From the NCBI GenBank assembly GCA_001017865.1, contig LATQ01000001.1:798134-804530 (forward strand): a stretch of 6,397 nt of DNA. Direction: 5' to 3'. Made by a program: the position numbers and the translations under genes. This stretch comes from Rhodococcus sp. IITR03. GTDB taxonomy: Bacteria > Actinomycetota > Actinomycetes > Mycobacteriales > Mycobacteriaceae. The stretch's first letter is position 1, and every line of letters starts with the position of its first letter. This document shows positions 754 through 6,397 of this stretch, piece by piece. The notes below the pieces were generated by a model that was given only the letters and a program-made list of their open reading frames with translations, did no database searches and was not told the DNA's origin.

Positions 754-1095
754 ATGCGTACTCTTGCCACCCGCTCCCATCTCGCGACCGCAGCCGTCCT
801 GTCGCTCGGCACCACCGCAGTACTGCTCGGAACAGGAACTGCCGCAGCACAACCCGCGCCCGGTGTGGTCGGCATGAGCGAGCAGGCCGCGGTCGCCGTG
901 CTCGCCGCGGAGGGTGTGCCGTACTCGATCGTCAACCGGTCCGGTTCCGCCGGCGGCGACTGCACCGTGACCGCTCAGCGCGACCGGGGATACCGGACCG
1001 AGGTCGAGTACGAATACGACAGTGACGACAACGACTTCGATCGTGTCGAACGTCAGGTGTGGCGCGGGGTCGGCCTGACGGTCGTGTGCCGCTGA
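754..1095 (+). CDS. small secreted PASTA-like protein
   Basis: A 113-residue exported protein. ATG 754 is chosen because GGAGGAA at 744-750 sits 3 bases before it, and because the translation begins with a classical signal peptide: basic MRTLATR, a hydrophobic stretch at about 10-27, and cleavage probably after AAA at residue 32, before QPAPG. The mature part is about 81 residues. Its opening VVGMSEQAAVAVLAAEG, the middle CTVTAQRDRG and the closing GVGLTVVC follow the layout of a PASTA domain (V-G-x-x-x-x-x-A-x-x-x-L, then V-x-x-Q-x-P-x-x-G, then a final beta strand). The match is by eye and partial. Cys70 and Cys112 could form a disulfide outside the cell. An acidic insertion (about 83-97, rich in D, E and Y) separates the last two strands. 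It could act at the cell wall, but no partner is visible. It converges on the nitroreductase gene with only 13 bases between the stops. Confidence 0.85.
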   Translation: MRTLATRSHLATAAVLSLGTTAVLLGTGTAAAQPAPGVVGMSEQAAVAVLAAEGVPYSIVNRSGSAGGDCTVTAQRDRGYRTEVEYEYDSDDNDFDRVERQVWRGVGLTVVCR

Positions 1096-1970: not shown

Positions 1971-2151
1971 CTGATCGGCAATACCGACGGTCGAGTCTGC
2001 CTCCTCGCGTCCCGGCCGCCGAGCATTGCCCTCAGCATGATTTCAGCGTTGTCCGGGCCGGCTCGTCCGACCGACCCCGAGACGAAGATCAGGGTGAAGA
2101 TCCGGGCCGTTCCCGGATGTGCCGAGACCGTTACGGCGACAGGATGAATAC

Positions 2152-2355
2152 ATGAACTTCGAGAACCAGGCCCCCCGTCCCTTCACCCGCTCCTCGTCCC
2201 AGCGCATGCTCGGTGGTGTGTGCGCCGGACTGGCCGAGTACTTCAACGTCGACCTCAACCTCGTGCGTGCAGGCGCAGTCCTCGCAGCCTTCGTCACGGG
2301 CGGCACCGCCGTGTTGCTCTACCTCGCCCTGTGGATGCTGATCCCCGAGAACTGA
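2152..2355 (+). CDS. PspC-domain small membrane protein
   Basis: A 67-residue protein that is essentially one PspC domain. The signature RMLGGVCAGLAEYFNVDLNLVR occupies residues 18-39 and is followed by a single membrane helix at about 40-63 (AGAVLAAFVTG, then LLYLALWML), ending in the typical IPEN. In enterobacteria PspC is an envelope-stress sensor. In actinobacteria short stand-alone PspC proteins are common and mostly uncharacterised, so a role in membrane stress is only an inference. ATG 2152 has a weak AGGA at 2141-2144. The only other in-frame start, at 2119, has no better ribosome site and would add a non-conserved extension. A strong hairpin follows 27 bases after the stop. It is transcribed towards the small peptide gene on the other strand. 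Confidence 0.9.
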   Translation: MNFENQAPRPFTRSSSQRMLGGVCAGLAEYFNVDLNLVRAGAVLAAFVTGGTAVLLYLALWMLIPEN

Positions 2356-2381
2356 TCCGGGTCACGGGGTCGGCCGAGACG

Positions 2382-2417
2382 ACGACACCCCCGGCGGAGA
2401 TCCGCCGGGGGTGTCGT
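2382..2417. terminator. strong hairpin after the PspC gene, possibly bidirectional
   Basis: The two arms, 2382-2398 and 2401-2417, are perfectly complementary over 17 bases (the top of the stem must open to give a loop of about 4). The stem is GC-rich around CCCCCGGCGG. T-runs are poor on both sides, as is usual in actinobacteria. It lies between two converging genes, so it can serve both. Confidence 0.75.
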
Positions 2418-2420
2418 ATT

Positions 2421-2437
2421 CCGCTGCGAGGCAGCGG
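2421..2437 (-). terminator. short hairpin downstream of the 35-codon gene
   Basis: CCGCTGC and GCAGCGG form a perfect 7-bp stem around a 3-base loop. It lies 25 bases beyond the stop of the small peptide gene. With the larger hairpin at 2382-2417 it forms a tandem termination zone for minus-strand transcription, and may also protect the 3' end of a short abundant mRNA. Confidence 0.5.
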
Positions 2438-2461
2438 CACAGCTGTTCAGCTCAGCAGGAA

Positions 2462-2569
2462 CTACTGGCCGAGGCCGAGAACGGCACTGCCGGTCTCGAG
2501 CAGGGTGCCGAGCAGTTCGGTGCCGCCGAGCAGTTCGAGGGCAGAGCCGATGAGTTCGATGACGTCCAT
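2462..2569 (-). CDS. 35-residue acidic helix-prone peptide, candidate PorA/PorH-like mycomembrane pore peptide
   Basis: A very short gene whose reality rests on a near-perfect ribosome site: AAGGAG at 2581-2576, six bases before ATG 2569. It encodes 35 residues with five acidic (D2, E5, E12, E18, E25) and no basic residues; the rest are mainly L, I, V, G, A, S and T. The acidic residues recur every 6-7 positions within E-L/I-L/I-G blocks (ELIG, ELLG, ELLG), so a helix would carry its charges on one face. GSA occurs twice, at Ser9 and Ser28. There is no signal peptide, Cys or aromatic residue. PorA and PorH of C. glutamicum (45 and 57 residues as I remember) are likewise tiny, helical, without signal peptide, encoded beside groEL2 and O-mycoloylated on serine. 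Here groEL2 and a mycolyltransferase lie directly upstream on the same strand. The homology is inferred from size, composition and context, not alignment. Alternatives are another amphipathic peptide, a type I toxin-like peptide or a regulatory leader. Confidence 0.62.
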   Translation of the reverse strand: MDVIELIGSALELLGGTELLGTLLETGSAVLGLGQ

Positions 2570-2575
2570 GTGAAT

Positions 2576-2581
2576 CTCCTT
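2576..2581 (-). promoter_or_regulatory. ribosome binding site of the 35-codon gene
   Basis: AAGGAG on the minus strand with a 6-base spacer to ATG 2569. This is among the strongest translation signals in the window and the main reason to accept such a short gene. It also rules against the much longer in-frame reading that would begin at 2728. Confidence 0.75.
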
Positions 2582-2630
2582 CGTCCGATCACATACCGGA
2601 CGGGTCTCGTCCGATTGCTTTTCGCCTACC

Positions 2631-2652
2631 CGGAATTCCGATCGGAATTCCG
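2631..2652. promoter_or_regulatory. 22-bp perfect palindrome made of two palindromes
   Basis: CGGAATTCCG occurs twice with AT between the copies. Each copy is its own reverse complement, and so is the whole 22 bp. It lies about 62 bases upstream of the small peptide start, probably in the 5' UTR or just downstream of the promoter. It could be an operator for a dimeric or tetrameric repressor, or a stable mRNA stem. Confidence 0.6.
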
Positions 2653-2717
2653 TCGGGCTCGCCTCAATTCTCAACACATTCGACGTGCCTGCGCGACCCG
2701 AGAATACGCAAATCGGA

Positions 2718-2733
2718 TGTGATGACATTCACA
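2718..2733. promoter_or_regulatory. perfect CRP/GlxR-type operator
   Basis: TGTGATGACATTCACA matches the consensus TGTGA-N6-TCACA in all ten specified positions. This is the site of the cAMP-responsive regulators Crp (mycobacteria) and GlxR (corynebacteria). Its centre lies about 156 bases upstream of the 35-codon gene and just upstream of a possible -10 at 2706-2701. That placement covers the -35 region and would fit repression or activator-dependent use of a weak promoter. Confidence 0.65.
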
Positions 2734-2858
2734 CTTGCAGAGAAGCTGGGAAGAGCTCACATATGCCCAGCTCACAGCGTCAAGGAAAGAAAACGGAACG
2801 TCCGTACCCAATTATTTCTGTTTGAATTCGACATTTCCGTTCGACCCGATTCATCCCG

Positions 2859-2880
2859 TTCGCCGACCGATTACGGCGAA
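2859..2880. repeat. inverted repeat
   Basis: TTCGCCG (2859-2865) and CGGCGAA (2874-2880) are complementary around an 8-base loop. It lies downstream of the mycolyltransferase terminator on the minus strand, so it may be a backup hairpin or part of the regulatory region of the peptide gene. Confidence 0.35.
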
Positions 2881-2900
2881 TCGACCGATCCATCGGTCGA
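2881..2900. repeat. inverted repeat TCGACCGAT / ATCGGTCGA
   Basis: Two 9-base complementary arms separated by CC. The motif CGACCGA recurs at about 2864, 2882 and 2905, so the local composition is repetitive. It is a possible second hairpin after the mycolyltransferase gene or an operator. Confidence 0.4.
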
Positions 2901-2917
2901 ATAACGACCGAAAGAAG

Positions 2918-2949
2918 ATGCCCGATTCGACCGGGATCGAATCGGGCAT
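2918..2949 (-). terminator. intrinsic terminator of the mycolyltransferase gene
   Basis: Arms at 2918-2930 and 2937-2949 are perfectly complementary over 13 bases (core GCCCGATTCGA) around a 6-base loop. On the minus strand the stem is followed by the T-rich TCTTCTTTC. It starts 23 bases after the mycolyltransferase stop. This is the best intrinsic terminator in the window and separates that gene from the downstream peptide gene. Confidence 0.8.
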
Positions 2950-2972
2950 TTCCGGTGGATCGTCCGGGACCT

Positions 2973-3991
2973 CTACAGTCCGACCGCCTGCGACAGAAGC
3001 GGCCACGAGTTGCGCAGATCGTCCTCCCAGTAGTCCCAGGAGTGCGTACCCGCCGGACGCAGGTCGATCCGGGCGGGGATGTCCAACTCCTCGAGTCGCT
3101 GGGCCATCCGCCGGGTGCAGTGGTGGACCGCCGCCTCGATGCTGCCGCCGACGACCACCTGCCCGACGAGCCCGATCGGGTCGTTGTTCACCGACCGCGA
3201 TCCGAGCCGCTCGTACTGCCCGGGCAGACCCGAACCCGACGAGATGTACAGGTCGATACCGCGGAGCTTCTCGGCCTGGAGGTAGGGATCGTTCTCGATC
3301 CAGGCCGGATCACCGACCGGGCCCCACATGTTCTCGGGGTCGCCACCCTTGACGCGTACGACGGCCTGCACGTAGGACTGCCCCAGCGGCGTGCTCGTCT
3401 CGGCGCATCCGCTGTATGCCCCGACCGCCTCGTACAGCTCGGGGGCCGTCGTGGCGAGGCCGAGCACCGACGTCCCCGACATCGACAGACCCGCAATCGC
3501 GTTGCGTCCCGACGTCCCGAACTCCCTGTCGATGACCGGCGGGAGTTCGTGCGTCAGGAAGGTCGTCCACATGTTGCGGCCGAGCGCGGGATCGTCGTTG
3601 CGCCAATCGGTGTAGTAGCTGTAGCCGCCGAGGAGCGGCGTGACGACGTTGATGTTCTTGTCCGAGAAGAAGTTCTCGACGTCGGTCTGCTTCTCCCAGG
3701 TGGCGATTCCCTGCCCGCCTCCCGAGCCGTTGAGCAGGTAGAGGGTGGGGCGCGGTTCGCTCGCGTCGGCGGCGTCCGGACCCGGAGGGGGATCACCTTG
3801 TCCATCGACGGCGAGTAGACGTTGGCGATGACGGTGCGGTCGCTCTCGCGCTCGACAGAGGTCAGCTCCCCCACCGGTCGCTGATCGTCGGCTTCCACCG
3901 GCTGCGCGAGAGCACCTCCGGGAGCCGCGAGGACCATCGACGTTCCCATCGCCACCGTGAGCAGTACCCGCCGTAACCAGGACGACCGCAT
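2973..3991 (-). CDS. secreted mycolyltransferase, antigen 85 / corynomycolyltransferase family
   Basis: Extracytoplasmic esterase-fold enzyme of the family that moves mycolic acids between trehalose mycolates, arabinogalactan and, in corynebacteria, proteins. ATG 3991 follows a purine-rich GAGGGGAAG and gives a signal peptide with basic start MRSSWLRR, a hydrophobic core at about 9-24 and likely cleavage after ALA at 29. Family features in order: TLYLLNG (84-89), a GGYSYYTDW segment like the GGQSSFYSDW of antigen 85 (122-130), WTTFLTHELP (142-151), nucleophile elbow GLSMSG with Ser170, Glu286 in GGSIEAAVHHC as likely acid, and GTHSWDYW with His317. Cys196 and Cys292 may form a disulfide. Length is 339 residues after repair, normal for the family. 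One base appears to be missing near 3777 (codon 72), which would otherwise truncate the protein early. Acyl acceptor unknown; the adjacent 35-residue peptide is an attractive candidate, by inference only. Confidence 0.9.
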
Positions 3992-4072
3992 ATTCTCTTC
4001 CCCTCGTCGATCCGTCTGTCTGCGCACCTCGGACCGGTTGCGGATCGGTACGAACCTCCGGAACCGCATGAA

Positions 4073-4088
4073 GTGACACTTTCGTGAC
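4073..4088 (-). promoter_or_regulatory. MtrA-like direct repeat upstream of the mycolyltransferase gene
   Basis: On the minus strand GTCAC-N6-GTCAC gives an 11-bp period, about 80 bases before the start codon. MtrA, the actinobacterial cell-envelope response regulator, binds direct repeats of GTNAC-type half-sites with about this spacing, and the antigen 85B promoter is a known MtrA target in mycobacteria. The match is by eye and the motif is short, so the assignment is tentative. Confidence 0.45.
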
Positions 4089-4165
4089 ATTCATCGTCCG
4101 CGGAGCGCGTTTCGTAACGAATATGTGATCGTTCGGTACGGGAGGCCGGAACGATCGGGGAAGAG

Positions 4166-4205
4166 CACGAGGCCCGACCCCACCGGAGTGGGATCGGGCC
4201 TCGTG
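4166..4205 (-). terminator. long hairpin terminator after groEL2
   Basis: An 18-bp stem with one G-T pair: outer arms of 12 bases (4166-4177 and 4194-4205, core GAGGCCCGA), inner 6-base arms and a 4-base loop CGGA. No long T-run follows. It separates groEL2 from the mycolyltransferase gene on the same strand, suggesting separate transcription units. Confidence 0.8.
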
Positions 4206-4214
4206 TGGCTCAGC

Positions 4215-4280
4215 GGCGGATCGGAAGTCCTCTCCGCCCGCAGGGGCGGATCAGAAGTCCTCTCCGCCCGCAGGGGCGGA

Positions 4281-4290
<10 letters not shown>
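4215..4290. repeat. 30-bp tandem repeat overlapping the groEL2 stop codon
   Basis: About 2.5 copies with a period of exactly 30 bases: 4221-4250, 4251-4280 and the partial 4281-4290, with matching bases back to 4215. The only difference among the copies is at 4223 (G where the others have A). Each full copy holds a 7-bp hairpin, TCCGCCC-GCAG-GGGCGGA (4233-4250 and 4263-4280). The partial copy contains the groEL2 stop and last codons. As 30 is a multiple of three, the groEL2 frame continues through the copies. Confidence 0.85.
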
Positions 4291-6026
<1,736 letters not shown>

Positions 6027-6182: not shown

Positions 6183-6397
6183 TCAGCGCGGCGTCGAACC
6201 GACCCCCACGGCGCACCACTGCCCCGTCGCGGTGTTGACCGCGAACGACTGGGCTCCGACGCACGTGACGCCGGTGGTGTCGGCCGTGGCGCCCGACCCG
6301 TAGCCGGCCACCGACAGGGTCGTCGCCGGACCCTGCGCCCACGAGTGGCTCAGTCCGCCGCCGAGCGCGTAGGCGAACGAACGGCCGCCGTCACGGG
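6183..6397 (-). CDS. unidentified protein, C-terminal 70 residues, probably exported
   Basis: An open frame enters from the right edge (first full codon at 6395) and ends at TGA 6185-6183; no start is in the window. The 70 visible residues are rich in G, A, T and S, with short beta-like strands (TTLSVAGYGSGA, then SFAVNTATGQWCAVGVG) and two cysteines (in VTCVG and QWCAV) that could form a disulfide. There is no membrane helix. Composition and cysteines suggest an extracytoplasmic beta-rich domain, but I do not recognise the family. It is on the groEL2 strand, yet the promoter and CIRCE sites between them make groEL2 a separate unit. Codon use is normal for the window, which supports a real gene. 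Confidence 0.65.
   Translation of the reverse strand, partial: RDGGRSFAYALGGGLSHSWAQGPATTLSVAGYGSGATADTTGVTCVGAQSFAVNTATGQWCAVGVGSTPR

What the first reader, a model, noticed from the sequence alone, without database searches (positions are those of the whole stretch)
2462..2569. 35-residue acidic peptide beside a mycolyltransferase and groEL2: candidate new PorA/PorH-like mycomembrane pore
Seen: a 35-codon gene with AAGGAG 6 bases before ATG, five acidic and no basic residues, E-L/I-L/I-G blocks every 6-7 residues, no signal peptide, own hairpins. Known (from memory): C. glutamicum PorA and PorH are tiny helical channel proteins without signal peptides, encoded next to groEL2. Inferred: this peptide is the counterpart in this organism. 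Such genes are usually missed by annotation because of their length.
Basis: partly seen in the sequence, partly recalled or inferred. Interest (0 to 1): 0.85.

Follow-up and report, generated by a model that had tools for sequence, protein, structure and literature searches.

The report
Tiny mycomembrane peptide gene in Rhodococcus
A 35-amino-acid gene in a soil bacterium is real, sits beside an enzyme of the type that attaches fatty mycolic acids to tiny pore proteins, and resembles a wider set of tiny peptide genes in related bacteria that family databases do not recognise, although nobody has yet shown that it forms a pore.

Summary
The 35-codon gene (2462-2569, minus strand) is real. Six of 18 Rhodococcus genomes encode an intact relative, with the same ribosome-binding site and an exact TGTGA-N6-TCACA site 152-164 bases upstream. 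The neighbouring enzyme is closest to C. glutamicum Cmt1/MytC, which O-mycoloylates PorA, and keeps its catalytic triad. Some other Rhodococcus and Nocardia loci carry different tiny peptides, often tandem pairs, beside relatives of this enzyme. Downstream of groEL2 in 58 loci a strict filter (set after seeing examples) finds 43 such ORFs, against none on the other strand, 0.1 in shuffles and 1 in an equal length of arbitrary genome; 42 of 43 contain Gly-Ser. Best reading: a leaderless, O-mycoloylated helical mycomembrane peptide, probably a channel subunit like C. jeikeium PorACj. Not shown: expression, mycoloylation, pore activity. Against: no match to PorA/PorH models; modest Ka/Ks (0.39); MspA-type porins in 18 of 18 genomes; weak amphipathicity; only a partial enzyme-peptide association (13 of 22 versus 12 of 36 loci). 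Observation confirmed; interpretation partly supported and widened.

The parts
2462..2569 (-). 35-aa leaderless acidic peptide gene (family 'C' in this report)
   Evidence: Translation; relatives; codon analysis; AlphaFold2 helices 3-14 and 17-33, mean pLDDT 77, pTM 0.33
2576..2581 (-). Shine-Dalgarno AAGGAG, 6 bases before ATG
   Evidence: AAGGAG at the same spacing in 7 of 7 family-C loci (window plus six genomes)
2718..2733 (.). TGTGA-N6-TCACA palindrome (CRP/GlxR-type site; the name is recalled), 164 bases upstream of the ATG
   Evidence: Exact in 7 of 7 family-C loci at -152 to -164; chance mean 0.01 per window
2382..2417 (-). strong hairpin downstream of the peptide, shared with the convergent pspC gene
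   Evidence: 16 pairs, -37.4 kcal/mol; not called as a terminator by the pattern scan
2918..2949 (-). terminator-like hairpin after the mycoloyltransferase, separating the two transcription units
   Evidence: 14 pairs; -23.4 kcal/mol
2973..3991 (-). Cmt1/MytC-type mycoloyltransferase (frame changes near 3770-3780 in the window; start codon is my reading)
   Evidence: PF00756; Cmt1 best PDB hit; catalytic Ser, Glu, His aligned to S189, E310, H341 of Cmt1; two frames
4284..5903 (-). groEL2 (in four frame pieces in the window)
   Evidence: tblastn with R. gordoniae GroEL2, 96-99% identity in the four pieces
2152..2355 (+). PspC-domain protein, convergent with the peptide gene
   Evidence: PF04024, E 3.7e-24

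Best explanation
The gene encodes a leaderless, acidic, two-helix peptide destined for the outer mycomembrane. It is proposed to be exported without a signal peptide, esterified with mycolic acid on a Gly-Ser (or neighbouring Ser/Thr) residue by a Cmt1/MytC-type mycoloyltransferase, most likely the adjacent one, and inserted in the mycomembrane as subunits of a homo-oligomeric helical channel, as C. jeikeium PorACj is reported to do. Shown here: the gene, its conservation, the signals of a separate transcription unit, the Cmt1-type neighbour with an intact catalytic triad, the helical prediction, and the recurrence of different GS-bearing tiny peptides near groEL2 and near related mycoloyltransferases in other Rhodococcus and in Nocardia. 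Inferred: export, O-mycoloylation, mycomembrane location, oligomerisation and pore formation. I put a real gene at about 0.95, an O-mycoloylated mycomembrane peptide at about 0.65, and a channel former at about 0.45.
For: Intact relatives in 6 of 18 Rhodococcus genomes with conserved SD and upstream palindrome. Nearest PDB relative of the neighbour is Cmt1, 4h18/8qhf, with S189/E310/H341 aligned; Cmt1/MytC mycoloylates PorA directly (abstract and passages of PMC11927696). Single small ORF after groEL2 with AGGAG 6 bp upstream and a downstream stem-loop is the published layout of PorACj. The strict filter gives 43 peptide ORFs downstream of groEL2 in 58 loci versus 0, 0.1 and 1 in three controls. 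GS dipeptide 27 in 16 cluster representatives versus 8.1 expected, maximum 18 in 2000 shuffles; published O-mycoloylation sites are mostly Ser among Ser/Gly/Ala without strict consensus (passages of PMC11066868). In Nocardia loci L007 and L008 the peptide pair sits just before a relative (56-57% identity) of the window's mycoloyltransferase with no groEL2 in the stretch held. AlphaFold2 gives helices 3-14 and 17-33; PorA is modelled as two helices around its target Ser15.
Against: No match of the peptide to NCBIfam PorACj/PorH models or Pfam. No homology detected between family C and families A or B. Ka/Ks for C is 0.39 on few changes (7 synonymous, 8 non-synonymous versus R. gordoniae; 15 and 22 versus G019); one pair (L001-L021) differs by a single non-synonymous change. 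Hydrophobic moment at 100 degrees is not above shuffles for the full window peptide (0.023, P 0.97), though 0.33 at 110 degrees; peptides A, B and the G019 relative do better, and the PorH control also misses (P 0.15). All 18 Rhodococcus genomes searched encode MspA-type porins, the class shown to form channels in R. ruber and R. corynebacteroides (passages). 33 of 58 groEL2 loci have no strict hit, and the link with a same-strand mycoloyltransferase is partial: 13 of 22 loci with one and 12 of 36 without one have a hit, Fisher P 0.06, not corrected for kinship. The filter was set after seeing examples. No transcript or peptide data.
Confidence: 0.57

Rival explanations
1. It is an O-mycoloylated mycomembrane peptide but not a pore: a mycolate-anchored structural or tethering peptide (a ProtX-like role, connecting mycomembrane and wall), while MspA-type porins carry transport.
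For: MspA family in 18 of 18 Rhodococcus genomes; the Rhodococcus channels characterised in the paper read are MspA-type (passages); PorH and ProtX are reported as linked to the cell wall (passages); some loci carry many peptides at once, seven strict hits in L062 and four in L052; the peptides are very short.
Against: Neighbourhood, size and single-ORF layout resemble PorACj, a demonstrated channel; Corynebacterium too combines small PorA/PorH channels with other porins (PorB, PorC; passages).
Confidence: 0.27
2. It is a membrane-active peptide of another kind, such as a type I toxin or a surfactant or bacteriocin-like peptide.
For: Short, hydrophobic and leaderless; families differ between species.
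Against: Net charge -5 with no basic residue, a strong SD, a Cmt1-type neighbour, GS enrichment. No known antisense RNA: Rfam, the only check made, gave four matches in 2000-3100, all below the gathering scores.
Confidence: 0.09
3. Conserved non-coding RNA or chance ORF in an intergenic region.
For: The region has strong hairpins; Ka/Ks is weak for this family alone.
Against: Third-position bias starts at the ATG; the frame is kept across an internal insertion in G019; SD and start are fixed in 7 of 7 loci; in families A and B dN is below dS in every pair that differs (44 of 44 and 21 of 21, though close in a few such as L028-L034, 0.23 and 0.25); filter controls; Rfam matches are all below gathering score.
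Confidence: 0.04

Closest known systems
C. jeikeium PorACj (jk0268), NCBIfam NF038022 PorACj_fam
   Same: Single leaderless small ORF after groEL2, AGGAG-type SD 6 bp before the start, stem-loop downstream, predicted helical (passages of PMC3792995)
   Different: 40 aa versus 35 aa; flanked by PPK2, not by a mycoloyltransferase and pspC; no sequence match; channel function not shown here
C. glutamicum PorA/PorH
   Same: Tiny helical leaderless proteins near groEL2, acylated by Cmt1/MytC (passages); some other Rhodococcus loci carry tandem pairs as PorH-PorA do
   Different: Two partners there; one peptide found in the window and in five of the six genomes with family C; no detectable sequence match
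Cmt1/MytC mycoloyltransferase (PDB 4h18, 8qhf)
   Same: Neighbouring enzyme is nearest to it and keeps S189/E310/H341
   Different: Encoded beside the peptide gene here; in the passages read, Cmt1 is not described as lying beside porA-porH
MspA-family porins (PF09203)
   Same: Mycomembrane channels of the same genus
   Different: About 20 kDa, signal peptide, beta-barrel octamer (passages); no resemblance to this peptide

Membership tests
PorA/PorH/PorACj small porins | Leaderless protein under about 60 aa | tested here: met
   35 aa, no K/R/H, no signal peptide seen by eye
PorA/PorH/PorACj small porins | Gene located between groEL2 and PPK2 | tested here: inconclusive
   Downstream of groEL2 on the same strand, but a mycoloyltransferase intervenes and pspC follows; PPK2 was not searched for
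PorA/PorH/PorACj small porins | Sequence match to NCBIfam models | tested here: not met
   No family up to E 10. The test is weak: of 5 control-locus peptides given to it, one passed a cut-off, one was below the cut-off and three had no hit
PorA/PorH/PorACj small porins | Amphipathic alpha-helix | tested here: inconclusive
   Two predicted helices; moment at 100 degrees not above shuffles for the full peptide, 0.33 at 110 degrees; a PorH control also misses at 100 degrees
PorA/PorH/PorACj small porins | O-mycoloylation by a Cmt1/MytC enzyme | not testable with these tools
   Cmt1-type enzyme adjacent; Gly-Ser present; modification itself unknown
PorA/PorH/PorACj small porins | Channel activity in lipid bilayers | not testable with these tools
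   None
Cmt1/MytC mycoloyltransferase (neighbour gene) | Closest to Cmt1 rather than Ag85/PS1, catalytic triad kept | tested here: met
   243.8 versus 155.6 and 93.6 bits; triad aligned. Of three paralogues of G015 tested, one is also nearest to Cmt1, one to PS1, one to Ag85C
Type I toxin peptides | Antisense RNA over the toxin mRNA | tested here: inconclusive
   No Rfam family over its gathering score in 2000-3100; undescribed antisense RNAs cannot be excluded
MspA porin family PF09203 | PF09203 domain | tested here: not met
   No Pfam family for the peptide up to E 10

The most novel reading that the evidence does not exclude
Rhodococcus, Nocardia and relatives possess a broad, fast-changing repertoire of 23-46-residue leaderless Gly-Ser peptides, one to seven per locus, often encoded with a Cmt1-type mycoloyltransferase; these are O-mycoloylated and form mixed helical channels or mycolate-anchored lattices of the mycomembrane, extending protein O-mycoloylation beyond Corynebacterium.
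Probability: 0.39. Interest if true: 0.82.

Novelty: new variant of a known kind. Interest (0 to 1): 0.69.

Why it matters
Protein O-mycoloylation is described in the passages read only for Corynebacterium, with Cmt1 orthologues noted in Nocardia and Rhodococcus (PMC11066868). This locus names concrete candidate substrates and a likely enzyme outside Corynebacterium, and simple tests. It also suggests that the mycomembrane of Rhodococcus may hold many tiny proteins that curated models do not recognise: 0 of 25 such peptides given to NCBIfam matched a model up to E 1.

Tried and rejected
Chance ORF or long ORF with an upstream start: disfavoured by codon-position and gap patterns. Known family by Pfam, NCBIfam or PDB sequence: none for the peptide; a few of the 30 peptides had weak, unrelated Pfam matches (best E 0.054). 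Homology of family C to A or B: not detected. A second peptide in the window, including GTG/TTG starts: none convincing. Peptides beside other mycoloyltransferase genes of G015 and G019: of nine rows printed for ten fetched regions only one 21-mer looked plausible, and the G019 regions scanned showed no counterpart. GlxR control of porH in print: one paper holds both words; the passages shown list GlxR targets but do not link GlxR to porH. Published description of such peptides in Rhodococcus or Nocardia: not found in the held open-licence library; most subscription papers are not held. Recalled and not verified: an R. erythropolis channel protein of about 8 kDa (Lichtinger 2000, in the reference list of PMC3792995; paper not held).

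Rows dropped: 7 of 18 genomes matched at E 0.5; the G014 match (E 0.43) was dropped as an unrelated coding frame and G019 (E 0.11) kept. In one search, 8 of 401 genomes matched profile C; two partial matches with an internal stop (G041, G082) were dropped, leaving 6. In one search, 19 of 401 matched profile A, two of them weak or partial (G033, G045). In one search two of the 60 loci were skipped because less than 1 kb follows groEL2; one of 43 hits (L031, no GS) looks spurious. Of the 12 named loci, 6 show such peptides (L001-L004, L007, L008); the other two Nocardia (L005, L010), R. koreensis, Aldersonia, Antrihabitans and the Corynebacterium MAG show none that I judged convincing. The ORF identities count gap columns caused by one divergent row and are not used.

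Full report
What is in the window. The peptide gene lies on the minus strand at 2462-2569 and reads MDVIELIGSALELLGGTELLGTLLETGSAVLGLGQ. Gene order on the minus strand is groEL2, a mycoloyltransferase, the peptide; pspC converges from the plus strand. A terminator-like hairpin (2918-2949) follows the mycoloyltransferase and a 16-bp hairpin (2382-2417) follows the peptide, so the peptide looks like its own transcription unit; no sigma-70-type promoter was found by the pattern scan.

Where it comes from. No whole genome is held for the window. The window is 99.86% identical over 6,404 aligned columns to an unnamed Rhodococcus genome, G015, and the nearest named locus is R. gordoniae DSM 44689 (91% identity for the mycoloyltransferase). 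A protein database search gave four proteins: the window's own 35-mer and three relatives of 80-88% identity, two of them called hypothetical protein, in R. rhodochrous J3 and Rhodococcus sp. B50.

Conservation. Among the 18 genomes held for the genus, intact relatives are in 6: G001, G011, G012, G015 and G017 by the peptide itself and the divergent G019 (MDAILELLASVLELFGSSEVPQSGSSGELLESGSAVLEGSVQ; profile E 2.8e-16). Start, SD and frame are kept in 7 of 7 loci (window plus six genomes; the window and G015 are near identical). Window versus R. gordoniae: 7 synonymous and 8 non-synonymous changes, dS 0.29, dN 0.11; window versus G019: dS 0.92, dN 0.36. This is purifying but modest. Substitutions fall 3,3,9 by codon position inside the ORF and 2,4,3 in the 66 bases upstream (window versus R. 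gordoniae), so coding probably starts at this ATG.

Regulation. An exact TGTGA-N6-TCACA palindrome lies 152-164 bases before the ATG in 7 of 7 family-C loci, including G019 where the spacer differs; the chance expectation in the window is 0.01. That this is a CRP/GlxR-type operator is recalled, not tested. Of 22 other peptide genes examined, two have an exact copy within 400 bases (L103 at -152, L093 at -291, both from the Corynebacterium-type control set), three have one mismatch (L036, L028, L030) and 17 have two or more.

The enzyme. The neighbour's best PDB match is C. glutamicum Cmt1 (243.8 bits) ahead of PS1 (155.6) and Ag85A (93.6), with S189, E310 and H341 of Cmt1 aligned to Ser, Glu and His. 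Cmt1/MytC mycoloylates PorA directly, and its deletion abolishes PorA, PorH and ProtX mycoloylation (abstract and passages of PMC11927696). G015 has 9 matches to this enzyme at E 1e-6; of three paralogues tested one is nearest to Cmt1, one to PS1 and one to Ag85C, so being Cmt1-like is informative but not unique to this locus.

The wider pattern. Three other named Rhodococcus loci (L002-L004) carry two tandem peptides after two mycoloyltransferase genes: a 25-mer (A, MGSTTITEIITFIFSLLSQSAEFLS) and a 30-mer (B, in L003 MGSITNGLEVINQLIGLVLAIAPALLTGSL), each with a strong SD. Nocardia donostiensis and N. testacea (L007, L008) carry another pair of 37 and 38 residues just before a related mycoloyltransferase, with no groEL2 in the stretch held. 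In all, 6 of the 12 named loci show such peptides. A strict filter (ATG, 22-60 aa, SD of 5 or more bases at spacing 4-9, at most one K/R/H, 70% or more of AVILMFGSTW), set after seeing examples, applied downstream of groEL2 in 58 loci (341,724 bases) gives 43 ORFs in 25 loci on the groEL2 strand, 0 on the other strand and 0.1 in dinucleotide shuffles. The same filter on 20 arbitrary regions from 20 of these genomes (342,000 bases, both strands) gives 1, which also has GS motifs. The loci are related by descent, so the 43 are not independent; the 42 unique sequences fall into 16 rough clusters. 42 of the 43 contain Gly-Ser. With one member per cluster, 27 GS are seen against 8.1 expected (maximum 18 in 2000 shuffles), and 15 of 16 representatives have one. 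In families A and B dN is below dS in every pair that differs (44 of 44 and 21 of 21; close to equal in a few).

Association with the enzyme is only partial. Of the 25 loci with strict hits, 13 have a relative of the window's mycoloyltransferase on the same strand, 6 only on the other strand and 6 none; 9 loci have a same-strand relative but no strict hit (13 of 22 versus 12 of 36, Fisher P 0.06, not corrected for kinship).

Distribution. Profile A matches 19 of 401 genomes of the family (two weak or partial); profile B 8 of 18 Rhodococcus genomes, the same eight that match A. C and A/B are nearly complementary: only G019 has both. There, A and B sit near one contig end and C near another, with pieces of a mycoloyltransferase at both ends, suggesting groEL2 - Myc - A - B - Myc - C - pspC. 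Five of the 18 genomes show neither C nor B; two of them (G008, G013) carry other GS peptides. Profile-profile comparison does not support homology between C and A or B.

Positive control. A looser filter in 20 loci of smaller or more distant genomes of the family shows, judged by eye, PorH/PorA-like peptides downstream of groEL2 in 9 of 20 (L086, L088, L092, L093, L095, L096, L101, L102, L103); two of these (L086, L088) also have relatives of the window's mycoloyltransferase (42-45% identity). Only the L096 59-mer passes NCBIfam PorH and PorACj cut-offs, out of 5 control peptides tested.

Structure. AlphaFold2 with five sequences gives helices 3-14 and 17-33 broken at Gly15-Gly16, mean pLDDT 77, pTM 0.33. 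PorA of C. glutamicum is likewise modelled as two helices around its target serine. The helical moment at 100 degrees is not significant for the full window peptide, nor for a PorH control; it is for A, B, the G019 relative and a PorA-like control.

Interpretation. The layout resembles PorACj, a single-peptide channel with AGGAG 6 bp before the start and its own terminators (passages of PMC3792995), and an enzyme of the acylating type is next door. I therefore favour a leaderless O-mycoloylated mycomembrane peptide, probably a channel subunit. The strongest counter-evidence to a pore is that MspA-type porins are present in 18 of 18 Rhodococcus genomes and are the channels characterised in R. 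ruber and R. corynebacteroides, and that no family model recognises the peptide. A tethering or structural role, as suggested for PorH and ProtX linkage to the wall, is the main rival.

Literature status. Passages only were seen of PMC3792995, PMC5944148, PMC11066868, PMC12632848, PMC9233653, PMC11927696 and PMC2807442; abstracts or their beginnings in the listings; other papers only as search listings. Searches showed no paper in the held library that, by its listing or the passages seen, describes these peptides in Rhodococcus or Nocardia.

Noticed in passing
window 2973-5903: groEL2 appears in four frame pieces and the mycoloyltransferase in two, whereas the matches in the 99.9% identical G015 have no internal stops; the window looks like draft sequence with base-call indels.
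   Followed up: partly
window about 4215-4290: A roughly 30-base unit is repeated in tandem around the 3' end of groEL2 (seen only).
   Followed up: no
G012 C1:4100219-4128939 and G014 C1:3603408-3634365: About 27-29 kb separates groEL2 from the peptide genes in these two genomes, against about 1.7 kb in L024, L025 and L027; possibly an insertion.
   Followed up: no
L062: One groEL2 locus holds seven strict-filter GS peptides plus an eighth under the looser filter, and two relatives (58% identity) of the window's mycoloyltransferase.
   Followed up: no
L145 minus strand, position 5505 of the reverse complement: The only arbitrary-region hit, MGSLSEFTLVENIAGFVSWAFGSLVLLGLAGALTSAS, also has GS motifs and may be a real member elsewhere in that genome.
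   Followed up: no
L177 position 6917 (G015 C1 about 3866916): A 21-residue ORF MLLGSLDALISNVLNFLDWLI with GGAGG SD lies beside another mycoloyltransferase gene; no counterpart in the G019 regions scanned.
   Followed up: partly
window 754-1095 plus and 6183-6395 minus: A PASTA-like protein (below the Pfam cut-off) and a DUF6764 fragment lie in the outer parts of the window.
   Followed up: no
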